64,000 nt of DNA from Verrucomicrobiales bacterium (GTDB lineage: Bacteria > Verrucomicrobiota > Verrucomicrobiia > Verrucomicrobiales > V1-33), in assembly GCA_028293125.1 (NCBI GenBank), contig JAQGPJ010000103.1, positions 62,001-126,000 on the forward strand, given 5' to 3'. Within the stretch, counting starts at the first letter, position 1. Every line of letters begins with the position of its first letter. The notes under the pieces were generated by a model. It did no database searches and was not told where the DNA came from. It was given only the letters and a program-made list of their open reading frames with translations. Made by a program: the position numbers and the translations under genes. Positions 6,321 through 21,695 of this stretch are shown one piece after another.

Positions 6321-8687
6321 TCAGGGATTCTCCGGATAAAGCAGCACACTCCAGCGGCGCTGGCGGAAGGCGTCGAGGCCCGGCTTCCAGGAGCGGATGA
6401 TCTCATCCAGCGGGAGGCGGGCGCGGATGGCGTCGAGGGTGGGCGGGTGGAACAGCAGGGTGTTCACCTTGGCCAGCTCGTAGGTTTCCCCGTGCTCCTC
6501 AAAAAGCGCTTGGGCGATGGCGATGCCGAGCCTGACACTGTCCAGCGCGCGCGGGTCGGCGACGGTGATCTGAACGCCGTGGCAGCGCTCGCCGGCGAAC
6601 TTGCTGGCATTGGGCGTGAAGTCGGCGGCCTCCATGTAAACGCCGGCGGGTTTGGCTTTCCGCAGCCGCTCCAGAAGGGCGGATGCATTCACCCAGGGTG
6701 CCCCCACCAGGCTGAACGGCGTTCCGGTGCCGCGGCCCACGGAGAGATTGCAAAACTCCAGCAGCCCGATGCCCGGATAAAGCAGCGCGGCCTCCGGGCT
6801 GCGCATGTTGGGGGAGGGATTCTCCCACGGAGCCAGGGTCTGGCTGAAGAAGAGCCGGCGTTTCCAGCCCTCGACGGGCACCACGGTCAGCTTCACGTTT
6901 TTCACGCGCTCGGCGGCGAAGAGGCGCGCCAGCTCACCCACGGTCATGCCGTGGCGCACGGGAATGGAGTGGCAGGCCACAAAAGGATTTTTCACATCCA
7001 CCGGCAGCGGCCCCTCGACATCCAGCCCGTCCACGGGATTGACGCGGTCCAGCACCACGAAGGGAATGCCGGCTTCAGCGGCGGCCTCCATGCAGTTCAG
7101 CATGGTGGAGATGTAGGTGTAGAAGCGGCAGCCCACGTCCTGGATATCAAAAACCAGCACGTCCACGCCTTTCAGCGACTCCGGGGAGGGCTTCCGGGTT
7201 TTGGTGTAGAGACTGAACACCGGCAGGCCCGTGGCCCCGTCCCGGCTGTCGGTGATATTTTCGTGGTCGAGCTTGCCGGCAATGCCGTGCTCGGGGCTGA
7301 AAAGCACGGTCACCCTGGCTCCCGGCGTTTTCTCCAGCGCCTTCAGCGTGGGCACCCCATCGGAAGTGAGGCCGGTCTGGTTGGTGATGAGGCCGATGCG
7401 CCGGCCCTCCAGCTCCTTCAGCCCGCGCTGCGCCACCACATCGGCTCCGGACTTCACCGGAGTCACGCACCCCATGGCCTCGGCGGCCAGGCTGGAGGTT
7501 TCATAGCGCAGCAGACCCACACTGCCCTGCTCCGTGGGATGGTTGCGGTTAGTCAGCAGCACGTAGAAGCTGTCCACCTCCGGATCAATCCAGAAGCAGG
7601 TGCCTGTCCAGCCGGTGTGGCCGTAGGACAGCGGGCCGAAGTGCGCGCCCCGGGTGCCGGAAAAACGCGTGGCAGCGTCAAAGCCCAGCGTCCGTTTCTC
7701 CCCGCCGGGCAACTGGTGAACCGCCGTCATCAGGGCCACGGTCTCCGGGTTCAGGATGACCGTGCCGTCATCGGCCTTTCCTTTGTTCAGCAGCATGCGG
7801 CAGTATTTCGCCGTGTCCACCAAGGTGGTGAAAAGCCCGGCATGCCCGGCCACGCCGTCCATGCAGCGGGCGGTGGGGTCATGCACCACGCCCCGCAGCG
7901 CAGCGATGCCGATGATCTCGGTGGGGGCGATACGCGCCAGTTTGGCGGGGTCAGGACGGTACTGAGTATCCACCATGCCCAAAGGCTGGTAAATCCGGTG
8001 CCGCGCGAAGGCGTCCAGCGGCTCGCCGGACACGCGGTGCACGATCTCCCCCAGCAGGATGAAATTGATATCGCTGTAAATGAACCCCTTCCCCGGAGCT
8101 TGTTTAATGGACTCCGAGATGACGCGGCGCAGGCCCTCCTCATATCCCTGCCAGTTGAAGCCGGTGGTGATGTCCGGCATCAGCCCTGAGACATGGGTCA
8201 TCAGCTGGCGGACGGTTATTTTTTCCTTCCCCTGCCCTTTGAATTCCGGAATGTAGCGCGACACCGCGGCGTCCAGATTCACCTTTTTCTCCTGCACCAG
8301 CAGCATCACGCAGGGCGTGGTGGCCATGACCTTGGTGAGGGAGGCGGCGTCGAAGATGGTGTCCGCCGTCATGGTCTCCCGCACCGGCACCACGGCGCGG
8401 CTGCCATACACGTTTTCCCAATGTTTGCCCCCGCGCTCCATCCAGAACACCCCGCCGGGGATCTCCCCGCGCTGGACCGCTCCGGTGACCTCCGCATTGA
8501 TGCCGGCGATTTTATCCGGACGGAAACCGGCGGCGGAACTGCCTGCGGTTTGAGCCTCCGCCTGGGCATGGGCCGTGGATGCCGGCAGCATGATTCCTGA
8601 ATATACCGGAATCATCAGCCAGGCGGCAAGGCCGCGGAGCCGGAGCCAGGGAGAGGGACGGGAATTCAGTTTCGGAAATGGCATCAT
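6321..8687 (-). CDS. Fusion of serine hydrolase (class C beta-lactamase-like) and NamZ-type exo-beta-N-acetylmuramidase (DUF1343)
   Basis: A 788-residue exported two-domain protein. A signal peptide ends near residue 42 (STAHAQA). Residues about 55-405 are a penicillin-binding/beta-lactamase-fold domain with S116-L-T-K119, Y204-S-D206 and H357-T-G359 as its three active-site motifs. Residues about 415-788 are DUF1343/NamZ: GRRIGLITNQTG (428-439), SPEHG (464-468), VFDIQDVG and VLDRVNPVDG are family landmarks. NamZ enzymes release terminal MurNAc from peptidoglycan glycans. The serine domain could trim peptides or esters from the same substrate, making this a one-chain muropeptide recycler or scavenger. 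The ATG and the next codon are both Met, so the start is uncertain by one residue. Confidence 0.9.
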   Translation of the reverse strand: MMPFPKLNSRPSPWLRLRGLAAWLMIPVYSGIMLPASTAHAQAEAQTAGSSAAGFRPDKIAGINAEVTGAVQRGEIPGGVFWMERGGKHWENVYGSRAVVPVRETMTADTIFDAASLTKVMATTPCVMLLVQEKKVNLDAAVSRYIPEFKGQGKEKITVRQLMTHVSGLMPDITTGFNWQGYEEGLRRVISESIKQAPGKGFIYSDINFILLGEIVHRVSGEPLDAFARHRIYQPLGMVDTQYRPDPAKLARIAPTEIIGIAALRGVVHDPTARCMDGVAGHAGLFTTLVDTAKYCRMLLNKGKADDGTVILNPETVALMTAVHQLPGGEKRTLGFDAATRFSGTRGAHFGPLSYGHTGWTGTCFWIDPEVDSFYVLLTNRNHPTEQGSVGLLRYETSSLAAEAMGCVTPVKSGADVVAQRGLKELEGRRIGLITNQTGLTSDGVPTLKALEKTPGARVTVLFSPEHGIAGKLDHENITDSRDGATGLPVFSLYTKTRKPSPESLKGVDVLVFDIQDVGCRFYTYISTMLNCMEAAAEAGIPFVVLDRVNPVDGLDVEGPLPVDVKNPFVACHSIPVRHGMTVGELARLFAAERVKNVKLTVVPVEGWKRRLFFSQTLAPWENPSPNMRSPEAALLYPGIGLLEFCNLSVGRGTGTPFSLVGAPWVNASALLERLRKAKPAGVYMEAADFTPNASKFAGERCHGVQITVADPRALDSVRLGIAIAQALFEEHGETYELAKVNTLLFHPPTLDAIRARLPLDEIIRSWKPGLDAFRQRRWSVLLYPENP

Positions 8688-15653: not shown

Positions 15654-16256
15654 TCAGAGCCCAGGCTCCAGCGTGGGAATGAACACACACGGCATGCCGG
15701 CGGCCTTGGCTGCCTCGACCCCAAGATGGCCGTCCTCGAACACCAGGCAGCGGCCCGGGGCGACCCCCAGCCGGCTGGCGGCCAAGAGGAACATGTCCGG
15801 AGCCGGCTTGCCATGGGGCACATCCACCGGAGTGATCACCGTTTGAAAGAGATCCAGGATGCCCAGGGCCTCCAGACCGCTTTTCACGATCTCGGCGTCA
15901 CTGCCGGAGGCCACGGCCATGGGCTTGAGGTTTTTTTGGGATTTGGCGAACTCCACCACGGGTTCGATGCCCTTGATGTTGTGGTGGTGGTTCAGATACC
16001 ACGCCAGCTTGTCCGCCTCCACGGCCAAGGGCGGCATGTCCATGCCGAACTGCTCATTCAACGCCCGCACGATGGCCGGTCCGGGCATGCCCGCGAAGGC
16101 GTGATGCATTTTGTAGGTGAAGGACTCGGCGGGAAAACCGTGTTTGGCCAAGGCGGCGCGCCAAGCGTCAAGATGCAGCGGCATGGAGTCAATCAGGGTG
16201 CCGTCACAGTCGAAGATATAGGCGTCGAATTCTCCGGGAGGAAAGTTAAGCGTCAT
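15654..16256 (-). CDS. HAD-superfamily hydrolase, beta-phosphoglucomutase-like
   Basis: A 200-residue soluble phosphatase/phosphomutase. Motif I is FDCDGTLIDS with nucleophile D16 and acid/base D18; motif II is VASGSD near residue 117, motif III the Lys in HGKPAPD near 148, and motif IV FEDGHLGVEAA near 172. The helical cap between motif I and II is of the C1 (beta-PGM/GPP) kind. Substrates of this subgroup are usually small sugar phosphates or related compounds; the specific one cannot be told. It lies between the coiled-coil membrane protein and mgtE, all on the minus strand. Confidence 0.88.
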   Translation of the reverse strand: MTLNFPPGEFDAYIFDCDGTLIDSMPLHLDAWRAALAKHGFPAESFTYKMHHAFAGMPGPAIVRALNEQFGMDMPPLAVEADKLAWYLNHHHNIKGIEPVVEFAKSQKNLKPMAVASGSDAEIVKSGLEALGILDLFQTVITPVDVPHGKPAPDMFLLAASRLGVAPGRCLVFEDGHLGVEAAKAAGMPCVFIPTLEPGL

Positions 16257-16433: not shown

Positions 16434-16976
16434 TCAGATGGGGGGTTTCTCCCCGGTGTTGGAATTCAGCGGTTCGGGTTCCCCGGGAATGACAGGCTGG
16501 GCTCCGCCCGTCAGAAGCGCGGTGTCGCCCTGCTGGGTGACGGTGCTGTTGCCAAAAAGGCGGGTAAAAATGCGCTTGGGCAGGCTGCGGCCTTGGTCCT
16601 CCACCGTCAGCTCTTCAATGGCGGCGGCCTTGGCGGTCTCCCAAGCGGCGGCGAAGCCGGGCGCCTGCAGGGTCATACGCTTCTCCGCGCGGCTGAGCAC
16701 CTCCAGATCCCGCAGCATTTTCTGCTCCGGCTTCTCATTCAGCTGGCCGATGCGCAGGCGCAGGTTCTCATTCTCCTTGGCCACCGCTTCCTTCTCCCGG
16801 CGGACGATCTCATACTGGCGGGCCTCCAGTTCCAGTTTGTCGCTCAGGTGCTTACGGTAGCGGCGGAGTTCGCGCTTGGTTTTGAAGTGCGACCAGGCGG
16901 ACAGGACAAAAAACAAAAGTCCCAGGCAAAGCCCCCAAACGAAGGGTTTGGAGAATAAGTCGATGAGTTTATCCAT
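16434..16976 (-). CDS. Single-pass membrane protein with coiled coil, unknown
   Basis: A 180-residue protein starting MDKLIDLFSKPFVWG, with one transmembrane helix at about 12-30 (FVWGLCLGLLFFVLSAWS) followed by a charged coiled coil (about 35-90, ELRRYRKHLSDKLELEAR and onwards) and a Pro/Gly-rich tail. It resembles small envelope or division-associated proteins only in general architecture. A TTG 11 codons upstream could also start it, but the ATG directly precedes the membrane segment. I cannot assign a function. Confidence 0.7.
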   Translation of the reverse strand: MDKLIDLFSKPFVWGLCLGLLFFVLSAWSHFKTKRELRRYRKHLSDKLELEARQYEIVRREKEAVAKENENLRLRIGQLNEKPEQKMLRDLEVLSRAEKRMTLQAPGFAAAWETAKAAAIEELTVEDQGRSLPKRIFTRLFGNSTVTQQGDTALLTGGAQPVIPGEPEPLNSNTGEKPPI

Positions 16977-17306
16977 GGGGTAAGGGGGATTGGCAGGGAG
17001 GCTCCGCAACGGTGAATGTGCGCGGCTGACGGGAATATTAACCGCGCCCCGCAGGGATTCACCGGTTTCCTGCTACGCAAAATGGCACACAGAGGGAAAC
17101 TTTCCGGCTTTTTTCCCCCGTCCACCCGTCTTTGCGGGTTGCTTTTTTCTGCCTCGTTCGGCGAACACAGAATTTCGCCCTCTAATTAATCGTGATTTCT
17201 AATTTTAAATAATATTTCCATAATTTCTGTAATTCAGCCCTTTTCTTTTTTGAAGCCGTGGTTTAAAAGGGAATGATCCACCTGAAGAGGCCCCGCCCCG
17301 TATCCG
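16977..17306. other. AT-rich divergent intergenic region
   Basis: This gap lies between the coiled-coil membrane gene and the P-loop ATPase gene, which diverge. From about 17175 to 17245 it is strongly AT-rich and contains a repeated TCTAATT, the sort of composition expected around a promoter. No promoter boxes could be assigned with confidence, and no coding frame or RNA gene was recognised. Confidence 0.5.
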
Positions 17307-20075
17307 ATGGCTTCCGAATCCTTTCAGTTCGAACCCGGCAATCCCTTCGCGGCTGACTTGGCCCCGGAGGGTCCTTTGGCGGACGGGGAATCCCCAGCGC
17401 TTCACACCGGGGCTCTGGAAGATTTGGAGGAATCGCTGGCGTGGGCCCGCAGTCAGCCTCCGGAGGCAGTGGGCCGGGGAGGCGGTCAGGTGGTGCTGCT
17501 GCGGGCACCGAGAGCGGGGTTCGGAAAATCGCACCTGCTGGCACGGCTTCAGGGCCGGACTGTCGAGGGCGCATTTTCGGTGTTTGTCAGCTTTGACCCG
17601 GAAGGGGGCGTGGGCTGGAAATCGGCGCTGCAGCAGGTGCTGGCCTGCTGGCATGTGGCGGTGGCCGGCGGGACCATTACCACGCTGGACCACATTTCCC
17701 GGCGGGTTTTCTCGCTGATGAATGCGGACCTCATCCGCGCCGGCAGGGTGCCCTGCGCCCAGCCGGAGCAGGCCCTCACGGCGCTGGAGCGGGACTACGC
17801 AGTGATGTTTGATTTTGGCGACCCCCGGCAGCCAGTGGCGCGGTGGTTTCAGGACCATTTCGAGCCCCTGATGGCGGCGGCGATGCCGCGGATGCAGGCC
17901 ATGACCGCCCTCGCGGAAGGCATTCTGACCATTTGGCTGCGGGCGCTGTGCGGTTATGCCCAAGGTGGGGCGCAGGGCGATCCCCGGCGGCTGGAGACGC
18001 TGGAGTGGGCCATCCGCCAGCCTCTGGCTGTGAACCCAAGCCAGACAGGGGGGCTGCAATGGCTCACTGCGGTGAGTGAAGGTGAGGGATTTCACCGCCA
18101 GATGCTCACGGCGCTCTGCCGGCTGGCGGCGGCCTGCCGGCCGGTGGTGGTGATGCTGGACCACCTTGATGGCTTTTATAAGAGTCAGGATGACCTGCTG
18201 CGGCTGGGACGGCTGATCGCGGACTGGCGGCGGCTGTCGGGCCGCACAGTGCTGGTGCTCAGTGTGAACGAGGATCTTTGGACGGGCACTTTCCAGAAAG
18301 CCCTGCCCAGCGCCCTGGAGGACCGGCTGACCGGGGCGGAGGTCAGTCTGGGGGGTATCACCCCCGAGGAGGCGGCCTCCCTGATCCGGTCACGGCTGAC
18401 AGCGGCCCAGGTTCCCCCGGCGGTCGCCCAAGGCTTCACCGCCGGTCTGGATCTGGCTGGCTGGATCGCCCGGCAGTCGCTTCAAGGAAGCCCACTTTCC
18501 CCCCGTGTGGTGCTGCGGCATGCCGCCCGTCGCTGGAAGGAATACTGGAAACCCGCCCCGGCCGCTCCCGCTCCGGAATCTCTTCCAGCCTCCCCTCAGG
18601 CAGTGGCTTTCCCATCCGCGCCCCCCCCCGCCACGCCGCCAAAGCCGGCCTCCCTCTCCGGATCCGATTTCAGGACCATGCCGTTTTCAGTCCCCGCACC
18701 GGCGTCCACCCCGCCGGTGGCACCCTCCTCCCTGCCTCCATCCGCCCCGGTGGCTTCTTCACCGCGCACGATTACCGACTCCCCCCCATCGTGGGATGCA
18801 CCAGCCGGGGACAGAACGGCATGGCCGGCTTTGGATCCATCCCCCTCCTTTTCGGCGCACTCCCCACCACCGGCCACGCCGGCTTCCCGGCAGCCGCCTC
18901 CGCCTCCGGCATTCTCCTCCCCACCCTCCTGGCCGGCACTGAGTTACTCCCACCCCGCCCCGGCTCCACCCGCACGGGCGGCATCCCAGGCTTTTGACAA
19001 CCGCCGCGCCTCATGGCAGGCGGGGGCGGGCCCGGCAATCCCGCCTTATTCAGCACCACCCGCGCCGATGCCATCCCCACCTCCGCCAGCGGTGACCTCG
19101 CGGGAGGCCGTTTCATGGAATCTGCCTGCCCCGGACACCGTGTGGGAGCTGGAGGACACGGCTTACCGGCTGCCGCCCGCCTCCAATTTCACCGATCCGC
19201 ACGGTCCCGCCGCACCCTCCAATCAGCCCTCCCCCGCCTATCAGCCTCCGGCAGCCTGGCCGCCCTGGTCCCCTCCCCCCCCGGAAGCGCCAACCGCTTA
19301 TCCACCCTCCGCCTATGGCCGCTCCGTTGGCGAGTCCCAGCCTGTCCGCCCACCGTCCCGGATGATCCCGCCGATGGCCGGCACCCAGCCCTTTCCCCCG
19401 CCTTCAAGCGCAGCGCCACAACCACAGCCACCATGGATGCCACAGGGCTCCCTTGGCTATCATGCCCCCCATGAGCCGGCACCGGCGCAGCAGTGGCTGG
19501 CCCATTCCCTGCCGGAATACACGCTGGCCGGGCGTTTCCAGCAGTTGAGAGCCCACTTCGCCTCCGCCGCCCGGCTGGGACTGGATCACGACCGCCTGCA
19601 CCGGCTCATCAAATGGTCCGGGCAGCGGCTGGCCGTGGTGCGTTATGCGGAGGCTCCCCTGCCGGGTCCGCCGGGACGGAAAGCCGCCGTCTGGCAATCC
19701 CCGGACGGGGAAATCCTTTTCGGCATCCAGCCTCACAGCGACCACGCCTACTGGTCCGCCCTGCTGCAGCTGGCGCGCCAGCGGCGGGAGCAGGTGGTCA
19801 GCTGCCGGCTGGTCCTGTTCTCCTCCGCCGCGGCCCCCATGGACCCCGCCCTGTGGCTCATGCACCCCGATGAGGCCGCCGCCGCCCGTGCCCGCTTTCT
19901 GGATATCCAGACGCTGGACCACGCGGAGCTGGCCACGCTTTACGCCACGGATGAGGTCCTGCGCGAGGCCGAGCGCGGCACGCTGGCGGTGGGCTCCTCC
20001 GATGCCTTCGCGGCCATGGCGCCTTACCTTGAATTTTTCTGGAAGCGCCTCACCCGACCTTTGCGGTCCGGCTGA
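17307..20075 (+). CDS. P-loop ATPase with a long proline-rich linker and a C-terminal alpha/beta domain
   Basis: A 922-residue cytoplasmic protein I do not recognise as a whole. Residues about 1-400 look like an AAA/STAND-type NTPase: Walker A is APRAGFGKSH with K74 and S75, Walker B is VVVMLDHLDG with D285 and D288, and RTVLVLSVNEDLW near 315 resembles a sensor strand. Residues about 417-728 are an extreme Pro/Ala/Ser region, surely disordered. Residues about 730-922 are ordered again (YTLAGRFQQLRAHF, then AVWQSPDGEILFGIQPHSD, LVLFSS, and TLYATDEVLREAERGTL) and look like a conserved alpha/beta domain. The layout, NTPase plus tether plus end domain, suggests a switch, clamp or assembly factor. 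No signal peptide or membrane helix. A GtrA-like remnant follows directly. Confidence 0.85.
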   Translation: MASESFQFEPGNPFAADLAPEGPLADGESPALHTGALEDLEESLAWARSQPPEAVGRGGGQVVLLRAPRAGFGKSHLLARLQGRTVEGAFSVFVSFDPEGGVGWKSALQQVLACWHVAVAGGTITTLDHISRRVFSLMNADLIRAGRVPCAQPEQALTALERDYAVMFDFGDPRQPVARWFQDHFEPLMAAAMPRMQAMTALAEGILTIWLRALCGYAQGGAQGDPRRLETLEWAIRQPLAVNPSQTGGLQWLTAVSEGEGFHRQMLTALCRLAAACRPVVVMLDHLDGFYKSQDDLLRLGRLIADWRRLSGRTVLVLSVNEDLWTGTFQKALPSALEDRLTGAEVSLGGITPEEAASLIRSRLTAAQVPPAVAQGFTAGLDLAGWIARQSLQGSPLSPRVVLRHAARRWKEYWKPAPAAPAPESLPASPQAVAFPSAPPPATPPKPASLSGSDFRTMPFSVPAPASTPPVAPSSLPPSAPVASSPRTITDSPPSWDAPAGDRTAWPALDPSPSFSAHSPPPATPASRQPPPPPAFSSPPSWPALSYSHPAPAPPARAASQAFDNRRASWQAGAGPAIPPYSAPPAPMPSPPPPAVTSREAVSWNLPAPDTVWELEDTAYRLPPASNFTDPHGPAAPSNQPSPAYQPPAAWPPWSPPPPEAPTAYPPSAYGRSVGESQPVRPPSRMIPPMAGTQPFPPPSSAAPQPQPPWMPQGSLGYHAPHEPAPAQQWLAHSLPEYTLAGRFQQLRAHFASAARLGLDHDRLHRLIKWSGQRLAVVRYAEAPLPGPPGRKAAVWQSPDGEILFGIQPHSDHAYWSALLQLARQRREQVVSCRLVLFSSAAAPMDPALWLMHPDEAAAARARFLDIQTLDHAELATLYATDEVLREAERGTLAVGSSDAFAAMAPYLEFFWKRLTRPLRSG

Positions 20076-20169
20076 AAAAGCGCGGTCCGCGCTTTCAGGA
20101 CCACGCGGCAGGAGCGGCGCTTTTACCGGCGGTGTGGCCGGCTTGCATTCCGGACCGGGCAGCGTAGGA

Positions 20170-20512
20170 ATGCCGTCCGGTCATGCTTTCATTCTCCACT
20201 TGCTGGAACAGCATCCATCACCAGGACAGCGAATCCATAGTTTTCCCCCCACCGCCATCGCGTTCGTGCTCTCCAATGCGTTCGCCTCCTGGCTGAATAT
20301 GAAGTGGGTCTTCACTCCCGGACGCCACACCCCGCTGCGGGAATTTCTGTTCTTCACTGCAGTGAATCTGCCGGGAGCGCTGACCGGCACCCTGGCCCAG
20401 GCCATGCTGGTTTTTTCTGCACTGGCCGGAGTGGGCAGCGCTGGCGGGTTTCATTCTGCCGAATGTGCTGATCAACTTCATCTGCCGGAAATTTTTGATT
20501 TTCAGGAAATGA
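20170..20512 (+). pseudogene. GtrA-family membrane protein remnant
   Basis: The frame from about 20170 reads HAFILHLLEQH, then AIAFVLSNAFASWLNMKWVF, LREFLFFTAVN, which is the typical second and third helix of GtrA proteins (small flippase-like proteins that move polyprenyl-linked sugars). Near 20430-20440 it goes out of frame, and the +1 frame finishes with LAGFILPNVLINFICRKF and a TGA at 20510-20512, a textbook GtrA end. The first membrane helix is not readable in any frame. One extra base plus a lost N-terminus make this a degraded gene, unless two sequencing errors are involved. Confidence 0.7.
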
Positions 20513-20764
20513 TCCGCCGGTTATGGCCTCCGCCGGATGCGCCCGGTTTTAAAAATACCGGTTTCACTGCCGCCCCCCTTTGCCATGGGGCGCGGATCAT
20601 GCCGAAAATGGCAGCAGGAAGAGAAATTGGCCATCACCCGCCGTTTCCACGCCGACGCCGGAAAAGTGGGAAATACACCAAGGTTAATTTTTTCGCTTTG
20701 AAAGTGCCGGAATCGCTGGACGGGGGAATCGTGCTGGTTAATCCTGCGGCCAATTGCATTCCCT

Positions 20765-20779
20765 CCTCATATGATGAGG
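20765..20779. promoter_or_regulatory. Palindrome over the AraC-family ribosome binding site
   Basis: CCTCAT-ATG-ATGAGG is a perfect 6-base inverted repeat with a 3-base centre. Its right arm ends in GAGG, four bases before the regulator's ATG, so it covers the Shine-Dalgarno. This could be an autoregulatory site or an RNA hairpin hiding the ribosome site. Short arms make chance possible. Confidence 0.3.
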
Positions 20780-20783
20780 CTGC

Positions 20784-21695
20784 ATGGCACTTCGCGTGCT
20801 CAGTCCCGCACGCGAACCTGATACTTTTACCGAGATGAAACCCGCTTACGAGAAATTGGCCGCCAGTGTGGAGGATGGCATTAACTGTAATATTGTGCAG
20901 GGAAAGACCTTCGGCTGTGTCTGGCATTTTCACCCTGAATACGAAATCACCCTCACGCGGAAAGCACGGGGGCACCGCATGGTCGGCGACAACCTCACCA
21001 GCCTGAAATCAGGCGATGTGGTGCTCGTGGGCTCCAACCTCCCCCACGACTGGCAGAACGACACCGGCGCGCCCGGCGGAGCCCAGCCGGTGGACCACAT
21101 GTGCATCCATTTCGCCCAGGACTGGCTCGGGCCAGGCTGGTTGGATCTGCCCTCCATGCAGCATGTTAAGCGGCTGCTTGCCCGCGCCTCCCTGGGCATC
21201 CACGTGACCGGCACCACACGCGACGAGGTGGAGGAGTTGATGCTGCGCATCCCGGAGGAGCACGGCCTGCCCCGCGTCGTCACCGTGCTGAACATCCTGC
21301 ACAAGCTCTCGGTCTCCAATGAGACCGAAACCATCGCCAGCCGCGGCTTCGCCCCGGAACTGGATCCCCATGACGAGCTGCGGGTGAACAAGGTGTCACA
21401 GTACATTCAGAAGCATCTGGATGAGACCATCTACTTGGAGCATCTGGCGGAGCTGGTGCACCTGAGCCCCGGAGCCTTCAGCCGCTTCTTCAAAGCCCGC
21501 ACCGGCAAAACTGTGCCCGGATTCATCAACGAACTGCGCATCGGCCGCGCCTGCCGCCTGCTGGCGGAGACCGACTACCCCATCACCGAAATCGCTTTCA
21601 GCTGCGGCTTCCCCAACCTCGCCAACTTCAACCGCCAGTTCCTCCGCCTTAAAAACATGCCGCCCCGTGAATGGCGGAGGCAATTTGCGGGGTGA
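20784..21695 (+). CDS. AraC-family transcriptional regulator
   Basis: A 303-residue DNA-binding regulator. The N-terminal 20-150 region is a cupin-like ligand domain (FGCVWHFHPEYEITL near 47, GDVVLVGSNLPHDWQN near 77-92), of the kind that senses sugars. The C-terminal 205-300 region holds the two helix-turn-helix motifs: LEHLAELVHLSPGAFSRFFK and ITEIAFSCGFPNLANFNRQF, closing with the usual PREWRR. The start is supported by GAGG four bases upstream. It follows the GtrA remnant after 271 non-coding bases that include a CCGGT/ACCGG inverted repeat. Its targets are unknown. Confidence 0.93.
   Translation: MALRVLSPAREPDTFTEMKPAYEKLAASVEDGINCNIVQGKTFGCVWHFHPEYEITLTRKARGHRMVGDNLTSLKSGDVVLVGSNLPHDWQNDTGAPGGAQPVDHMCIHFAQDWLGPGWLDLPSMQHVKRLLARASLGIHVTGTTRDEVEELMLRIPEEHGLPRVVTVLNILHKLSVSNETETIASRGFAPELDPHDELRVNKVSQYIQKHLDETIYLEHLAELVHLSPGAFSRFFKARTGKTVPGFINELRIGRACRLLAETDYPITEIAFSCGFPNLANFNRQFLRLKNMPPREWRRQFAG

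What the first reader, a model, noticed from the sequence alone, without database searches (positions are those of the whole stretch)
17307..20075. P-loop ATPase tethered by a 310-residue proline-rich linker to a conserved-looking end domain
An AAA/STAND-like NTPase (K74, D285, D288) is followed by an extraordinarily Pro/Ala/Ser-rich segment and an ordered alpha/beta domain with QSPDGEILFGIQPHSD and TLYATDEVLREAE. The architecture is typical of molecular switches with a fishing-line linker, but I know no family with these parts in this order. It is the most unusual single gene of the window and a fair candidate for a new signalling, defence or assembly system.
Basis: partly seen in the sequence, partly recalled or inferred. 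Interest (0 to 1): 0.6.

Follow-up and report, generated by a model that had tools for sequence, protein, structure and literature searches.

The report
Solitary Orc/Cdc6-type ATPase with inactive nuclease domain
The gene encodes an ATPase related to the proteins that load onto DNA at replication origins, joined by a flexible proline-rich tether to a nuclease-like domain that has lost its usual cutting residues; the same pair of domains is known from multi-gene systems predicted to fight invading DNA, but here it stands alone and has become a nearly universal gene of one bacterial order, with an unknown job.

Summary
In detail: one 922-aa ORF with an intact P-loop ATPase, a 312-residue Pro/Ala/Ser linker and an ordered C-terminal domain. 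Models of the two ends are confident (pLDDT 92 each). The N-part is an Orc/Cdc6-type AAA+ with Walker A/B, sensor 1 and likely arginine finger. The C-part has the strand/helix order of a PD-(D/E)XK nuclease without the canonical catalytic D...(D/E)xK. Both ends are homologous, in the same order but with no linker, to the AAA+/inactive-nuclease subunit of the 'Orc/Cdc6-HerA/FtsK capture' systems, predicted anti-invader operons described in 2024; a copy of that kind, fused to an FtsK motor, lies elsewhere in this genome. The window gene lacks the terminal wHTH, FtsK and active nuclease. It is a solitary derivative present in 114 of 153 Verrucomicrobiales genomes. The linker is lineage-specific (about 30-330 aa) and usually carries one short conserved helix motif (66 of 80 relatives), which the window copy has lost. 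In the Akkermansiaceae clade the nuclease-like domain is gone and the motif ends the protein. Function is untested; I favour a domesticated ATP-driven, partner-recruiting, DNA-associated scaffold. New variant of a known kind.

The parts
17307..20075 (+). Complete gene, 922 aa: Orc/Cdc6-type AAA+ ATPase - disordered linker - inactive PD-(D/E)XK-like domain
17328..18551 (+). AAA+ domain, residues 8-415
   Evidence: AlphaFold2 pLDDT 92.2; VIA-align Z 14.9 to archaeal Cdc6 1fnn and to Drosophila Cdc6 in 7jgr, 241-244 residues aligned; alignment A2
17505..17531 (+). Walker A, residues 67-75 APRAGFGKS (K74)
18144..18170 (+). Walker B, residues 280-288 (D285; D288)
18267..18269 (+). Sensor-1 Asn, N321
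   Evidence: invariant in 58 rows; end of strand 314-321 in the model
18324..18326 (+). Likely arginine finger R340, just before strand 344-347
   Evidence: invariant in 58 rows; position in the model; role inferred
18504..18506 (+). R400 in the lid helix region, candidate sensor-2 arginine
   Evidence: 57 of 58 rows; role inferred
18552..19487 (+). Proline/alanine/serine-rich disordered linker, residues 416-727; lacks the short helix motif found in most relatives
19509..20060 (+). C-terminal domain, residues 735-918: PD-(D/E)XK-like fold without the canonical catalytic triad
   Evidence: AlphaFold2 pLDDT 92.5; structural hits; column check; homology to the same domain of capture-system subunits
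16434..16976 (-). Divergently transcribed neighbour: predicted one-pass membrane protein with a coiled coil ('COIL'); ancestral neighbour of this gene in 11 genera of three families
15654..16256 (-). HAD-family hydrolase next to COIL in several relatives
16977..17306 (.). Divergent intergenic region (shared promoter region by position; no sigma-70 consensus or Rfam match found)

Best explanation
The gene is a solitary, apparently domesticated relative of the AAA+/inactive-nuclease subunit of Orc/Cdc6-HerA/FtsK capture systems. Shown by sequence and model: an Orc/Cdc6-type AAA+ with a full set of ATPase residues, followed by a PD-(D/E)XK-like domain without the canonical catalytic triad, with a disordered linker between them that the capture-system homologues lack; no wHTH, active nuclease or FtsK motor; maintenance throughout the order. 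Inferred: ATP-dependent assembly into a ring or arc (arginine finger acting in trans), probably around double-stranded DNA as in Orc/Cdc6, TnsC and MuB, with the tethered pseudo-nuclease and, in most relatives, a short helix in the linker binding partners. It would therefore act as an ATP-gated scaffold or recruiter rather than as an enzyme that cuts. Which partner it recruits, and whether it works on DNA or at the cell envelope, is unknown.
For: AAA+ fold: Z 14.9 to Cdc6, next rows Orc, TnsC, RdrA; weak AAA_16 in Pfam. Helical insert between strands 90-94 and 280-284, and R340 just before strand 5. C-domain: order a-b-b-b-a-b; PD-(D/E)XK proteins fill many of the top rows (PH0156, EndoMS, Nt.BspD6I, AF1548, FokI, YaeQ, McrC, XisH), though at Z 4-5. 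No conserved (D/E)xK: strand 3 reads E-I-L and strand 2 has an invariant W. Profiles from this family hit the capture-type subunits at E 1e-46 to 1e-13 (ATPase) and 1e-18 to 4e-4 (C-domain; six of the eleven capture-type proteins), with AAA+ ending about 414 and C-domain starting at 416 in capture-type proteins. Capture-type operons seen here. Published description. Core status: 114 of 153 genomes; family-structured tree with capture-type rows on one side of a branch, 98/96. Short motif in 66 of 80 linkers against 0.035 after shuffling.
Against: The structural match of the C-domain alone is weak (no Foldseek E under 0.001, Z about 5). E802 and a basic residue at 834 are conserved, so a non-canonical active site is not fully excluded. 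No direct evidence of DNA binding; the DNA-binding wHTH is missing. Operon partners in one clade and the divergent neighbour are envelope proteins, pointing away from DNA. The tree is unrooted and several capture-type rows have long branches, so the direction of change (capture system to solitary gene) is inferred.
Confidence: 0.62

Rival explanations
1. Envelope-assembly ATPase: a cytoplasmic AAA+ that helps build or position a membrane machine (a secretin/pilus-like apparatus), recruited through the linker motif and membrane partners, loosely like ExeA/GspA.
For: In seven Akkermansiaceae loci (L097, L105, L108, L109, L115, L121, L137) the gene sits in a tight same-strand row TPR-secretin - membrane protein - ATPase - ABC ATPase - ABC-2 permease. 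The membrane protein's N-terminus, before its transmembrane stretch, carries a similar motif, Y-S-x-x-E-M-M-x-R-L-(R/K). Elsewhere the ancestral divergent neighbour is a one-pass membrane coiled-coil protein.
Against: Secretin paralogues occur in all 24 genomes tested, the Akkermansia-like ones included, which lack the ATPase, and in most lineages the ATPase lies elsewhere in the genome. No transmembrane or peptidoglycan-binding part in the ATPase. The motif is short.
Confidence: 0.2
2. A solitary anti-invader gene: it still senses foreign DNA and acts with effectors encoded elsewhere.
For: Homology to the subunit of predicted anti-invader systems; a capture-type FtsK fusion exists elsewhere in the same genome.
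Against: Nearly universal, mostly one copy per genome, with a family-structured tree instead of the patchy, mobile distribution of defence genes; no defence genes next to it; no PADLOC hit; no plasmid or phage copies found.
Confidence: 0.13
3. A STAND-like signalling switch: nucleotide exchange opens or closes the molecule and the end domain is the effector.
For: Orc/Cdc6 and STAND ATPases are related (established knowledge); multi-domain arrangement.
Against: No sensor repeats or known effector domain; invariant arginine-finger candidate and lid as in oligomeric AAA+; end domain lacks canonical catalytic residues.
Confidence: 0.05

Closest known systems
Orc/Cdc6-HerA/FtsK capture systems (Orc/CDC6 AAA+ with iREase; NAR 2024, PMC10853773)
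   Same: Same two domains in the same order, homologous by profile; inactive nuclease-like domain directly after the AAA+
   Different: Window gene has a 312-aa linker, no C-terminal wHTH, no active REase, no HerA/FtsK gene nearby; nearly universal in the order instead of mobile
Orc1/Cdc6 initiators (e.g. Pyrobaculum Cdc6, 1fnn)
   Same: AAA+ core and lid (Z 14.9), helical insert after strand 2, arginine before strand 5
   Different: Larger helical insert; no wHTH; PD-(D/E)XK-like domain attached; about 12% identity
Archaeal Walker-type ATPases such as PABY2304 (2qen)
   Same: Related AAA+ domain (Z 12.7)
   Different: Compared at the ATPase only; no shared linker or end domain shown
TnsC / MuB transposition ATPases
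   Same: AAA+ of the same broad group (Z 12-13.6); ring or filament on DNA is the working model borrowed here
   Different: No transposase partner, no end domain
BREX BrxC / RADAR RdrA
   Same: Appear among structural matches of the AAA+ part
   Different: Different C-terminal parts; no sequence match in PADLOC

Membership tests
Orc/Cdc6-type AAA+ ATPases | Walker A lysine and Walker B aspartate | tested here: met
   K74, D285 present; conserved
[quoted passage not shown]
   Secondary structure of the model, R340 invariant; the finger's role is inferred
Orc/Cdc6-type AAA+ ATPases | Fold similarity to solved members | tested here: met
   Z 14.9, rmsd 3.9, 244 aligned to 1fnn; Foldseek itself only E about 3e-3 to 5e-3
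Orc/Cdc6-type AAA+ ATPases | C-terminal wHTH (typical of initiators, not of all members of the clade) | tested here: not met
   Protein ends a few residues after the C-domain's last helix
PD-(D/E)XK fold (active nuclease) | Core order helix-strand-strand-strand-helix-strand | tested here: met
PD-(D/E)XK fold (active nuclease) | Structural match to solved members | tested here: inconclusive
   Many PD-(D/E)XK proteins in the top rows, but Z at most 5.2, rmsd about 5
PD-(D/E)XK fold (active nuclease) | Catalytic D...(D/E)xK | tested here: not met
   W796 invariant on strand 2, E-I-L on strand 3, no conserved K there
Orc/Cdc6-HerA/FtsK capture system | Orc/Cdc6 AAA+ followed by inactive REase | tested here: met
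   Profile matches of both domains, published architecture
Orc/Cdc6-HerA/FtsK capture system | wHTH after the iREase | tested here: not met
   Absent from the window protein
Orc/Cdc6-HerA/FtsK capture system | Adjacent HerA/FtsK and active REase genes | tested here: not met
   FtsK-domain genes of this genome lie on contigs C102, C82 and C14, the window is on C31
Known anti-phage defence families | PADLOC profile match | tested here: not met
   No hit for the whole protein or its ends
STAND NTPases | Pfam/NCBIfam STAND model match and sensor repeats | tested here: inconclusive
   Only sub-threshold AAA_16/AAA_22 for the window protein; one relative gives sub-threshold nSTAND1; no repeat domain seen in the sequence

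The most novel reading that the evidence does not exclude
A predicted anti-invader AAA+/pseudo-nuclease was domesticated early in Verrucomicrobiales into a housekeeping ATPase that is recruited through a short helical motif in an otherwise free linker to an envelope (secretin/pilus-like) or chromosome-organising machine; the motif on the ATPase and the similar one on the secretin-linked membrane protein bind the same partner.
Probability: 0.15. Interest if true: 0.7.

Novelty: new variant of a known kind. Interest (0 to 1): 0.42.

Why it matters
If right, it is a case of a predicted defence subunit turned into a nearly universal gene of a bacterial order, without nuclease chemistry, DNA-binding wHTH and motor, and with a disordered, motif-bearing tether inserted. 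It gives an uncharacterised core gene of Prosthecobacter, Verrucomicrobium and Luteolibacter a fold-level identity and testable partners. It also shows that the striking proline-rich linker of the window copy is a lineage-specific elongation that lacks the one conserved element linkers of this family usually carry.

Tried and rejected
STAND/NACHT switch: only sub-threshold Pfam signals. Known defence families: no PADLOC or NCBIfam hit for the window protein. PDB sequence search: only chance-level hits. Plasmid and phage copies of the window protein: none. First scan of genome contigs with the single protein found no relative; the alignment did. Tandem-repeat origin of the linker: no arrays of note. 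Coupling to the coiled-coil neighbour by co-occurrence: strong over all genomes, but mostly because both are missing in the Akkermansia-like genus; with about 20 such genomes removed (a rough correction) only p = 0.03, so I rely on conserved adjacency instead. Secretin partnership as a general rule: rejected, since secretin paralogues are everywhere. The oligopeptide-type ABC gene downstream in the Verrucomicrobium group was not pursued. Rfam and promoter scans around the gene: nothing useful. SspH and mad8 hits of the FtsK fusions come from the shared FtsK motor and were not taken as membership. Active nuclease end domain: rejected on residues.

Full report
WHAT IS THERE. Relatives show the same start. 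The protein has three parts: residues 1-415 (AAA+), 416-727 (linker, 312 aa, 30% Pro, 18% Ala, 13% Ser) and about 735-918 (ordered end domain). No tandem-repeat array of note explains the linker.

RELATIVES. A BLAST search of 37 genomes, most from the same order, found the gene or a relative in 26. A profile search of 153 genomes of the order found it in 114, nearly always once; the gap is mainly one genus (g5) of small 2.2-3.3 Mb genomes that I take for Akkermansia from size and context. Named relatives come from Prosthecobacter, Verrucomicrobium, Luteolibacter, Phragmitibacter and Akkermansiaceae MAGs, so the order is Verrucomicrobiales. In a phylum-wide sample of 195 genomes only 11 had any match, several of them to longer FtsK-containing proteins. 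A tree of the ATPase domain follows the families, with one well-supported clade for Verrucomicrobiaceae rows, one for the Akkermansiaceae/Luteolibacter rows, and the window gene with its genus mates (92/99). This looks like vertical inheritance.

THE ATPASE. Modelled alone with 58 rows: pLDDT 92.2. Foldseek hits are AAA+ at modest E-values; re-alignment puts archaeal and eukaryotic Cdc6/Orc first (Z 14.9), then TnsC and RdrA. Walker A K74, Walker B D285, sensor-1 N321, R340 just before strand 5 (likely arginine finger) and R400 in the lid are conserved. Caution: the scan that collected most rows used a pattern containing the P-loop lysine, so the count for K74 is biased there; in the BLAST-collected set it is 22 of 23 with one Met. 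The position after D285 is H in most rows and D or E in the others, so ATP hydrolysis is likely but not certain.

THE END DOMAIN. Modelled alone with 46 rows: pLDDT 92.5, order helix-strand-strand-strand-helix-strand plus further helices. Foldseek finds nothing significant. In the second look many top rows are PD-(D/E)XK proteins (PH0156, EndoMS, Nt.BspD6I, AF1548, FokI, YaeQ, McrC, XisH), at Z 4-5 only. The canonical catalytic residues are absent: strand 2 carries the invariant W796, strand 3 reads E-I-L without the lysine. E802 and a basic residue at 834 are conserved, so I call it 'without the canonical active site', not proven inactive.

WHAT IT IS RELATED TO. The same genome has on contig C82 a 1033-aa protein with the same AAA+ and end domain followed by FtsK-alpha and an FtsK motor. 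Similar proteins occur as fusions or as two overlapping genes, in several cases with a preceding small gene (240-300 aa) and, in L162, a PD-(D/E)XK domain recognised by Pfam. A similar three-gene row is on a conjugative plasmid of Pseudanabaena. Profiles built only from the window family match the ATPase of eleven such proteins at 1e-46 to 1e-13 and the end domain of six at 1e-18 to 4e-4, and there the two domains follow each other directly. A 2024 paper describes this arrangement as Orc/Cdc6-HerA/FtsK capture systems, with an inactive REase between AAA+ and wHTH, and predicts an anti-invader role (PMC10853773). The window gene is therefore a relative of one subunit of that system, but not a member of the system: no wHTH, no active REase, no FtsK in the neighbourhood, not patchy or mobile.

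THE LINKER. Its length varies from about 30 to about 330 residues among relatives that keep the end domain. Within it, 66 of 80 relatives have a match to a short amphipathic pattern, such as FENLREMLGKLRQP in Prosthecobacter or MRDMLDRLKERFG in a genus mate of the window organism; shuffled linkers give 0.035. The pattern was written after looking at the sequences and related rows are not independent, so the number describes conservation rather than being a test. In the Akkermansiaceae/Luteolibacter clade the end domain is lost and the protein ends in DRVDDLLRQFRERYGR or close to it. The window copy has no match.

NEIGHBOURS. In 16 genomes of 11 genera and three families the gene is divergent from a one-pass membrane coiled-coil gene (window 16434-16976), in several followed by a HAD hydrolase (the 16 were counted by hand from the coordinates). 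In seven Akkermansiaceae loci it lies in a row secretin - membrane protein - ATPase - ABC ATPase - permease; the membrane protein's N-terminus carries a similar motif, Y-S-x-x-E-M-M-x-R-L. The secretin belongs to a family found in all 24 genomes tested, including those without the ATPase, so this is a lead only. The MUL2 locus of Akkermansia, which includes Amuc_1099, a PilM and a pilin (PMC13174399), may be related by position; I did not test it.

MECHANISM. Shown: domain identities, conserved ATPase residues, absence of the canonical nuclease residues and of operon partners, spread through the order. Inferred: ATP-dependent oligomer, likely on DNA by analogy with Orc/Cdc6 and TnsC; end domain and linker motif as binding modules. 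Main rival: an envelope-assembly ATPase. Both are testable with knockouts and pull-downs in laboratory strains.

VERDICT. Real, conserved and uncharacterised, but explicable: a solitary variant of a described kind of subunit. The most unusual-looking feature, the linker, is the least conserved one.

Noticed in passing
Own genome contig C82, L032:4821-8607: A second, FtsK-fused Orc/Cdc6 - nuclease-like protein (1033 aa) behind a 240-aa gene: a capture-type system in the same genome. Related proteins in L057, L058, L059, L162-L167.
   Followed up: partly
L169:5114-10073 (Pseudanabaena plasmid pPSE7367.01): Three-gene row hypothetical - P-loop NTPase - FtsK on a conjugative plasmid, distant homologue of the capture-type operons of Verrucomicrobiota.
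   Followed up: partly
L097, L105, L108, L109, L115, L121, L137: Row TPR-secretin - membrane protein - ATPase - ABC ATPase - ABC-2 permease in Akkermansiaceae; the membrane protein's N-terminus shares a short helix motif with the ATPase linkers.
   Followed up: partly
window 16434-16976 (-): One-pass membrane coiled-coil family found in 119 of 153 Verrucomicrobiales genomes with a conserved APGFAxAWExAK stretch; no curated family fits well.
   Followed up: partly
L042:2473-4536: One relative (G010) has Met in place of the Walker A lysine although the rest of the P-loop is kept.
   Followed up: no
window 20101-20838 (+): Reading frame downstream of the gene with a weak GtrA-like transmembrane match (below the Pfam cut-off), overlapping the start of the AraC-type gene at 20784.
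   Followed up: no
window 6321-8687 (-): Fusion of a beta-lactamase-like domain with the N- and C-terminal domains of NamZ exo-muramidase in one 788-aa protein (Pfam).
   Followed up: no
G000:C14:98745-99110 and similar frames in G005, G006, G015, G032, G208: Further FtsK-domain proteins of about 1250-1370 aa, seemingly unlike the housekeeping FtsK and the capture type; some with two FtsK matches.
   Followed up: no
L130:7971-9640: Relative whose linker ends in many copies of a KPVVEA-type repeat, running to the end of the fetched frame at the locus edge.
   Followed up: no
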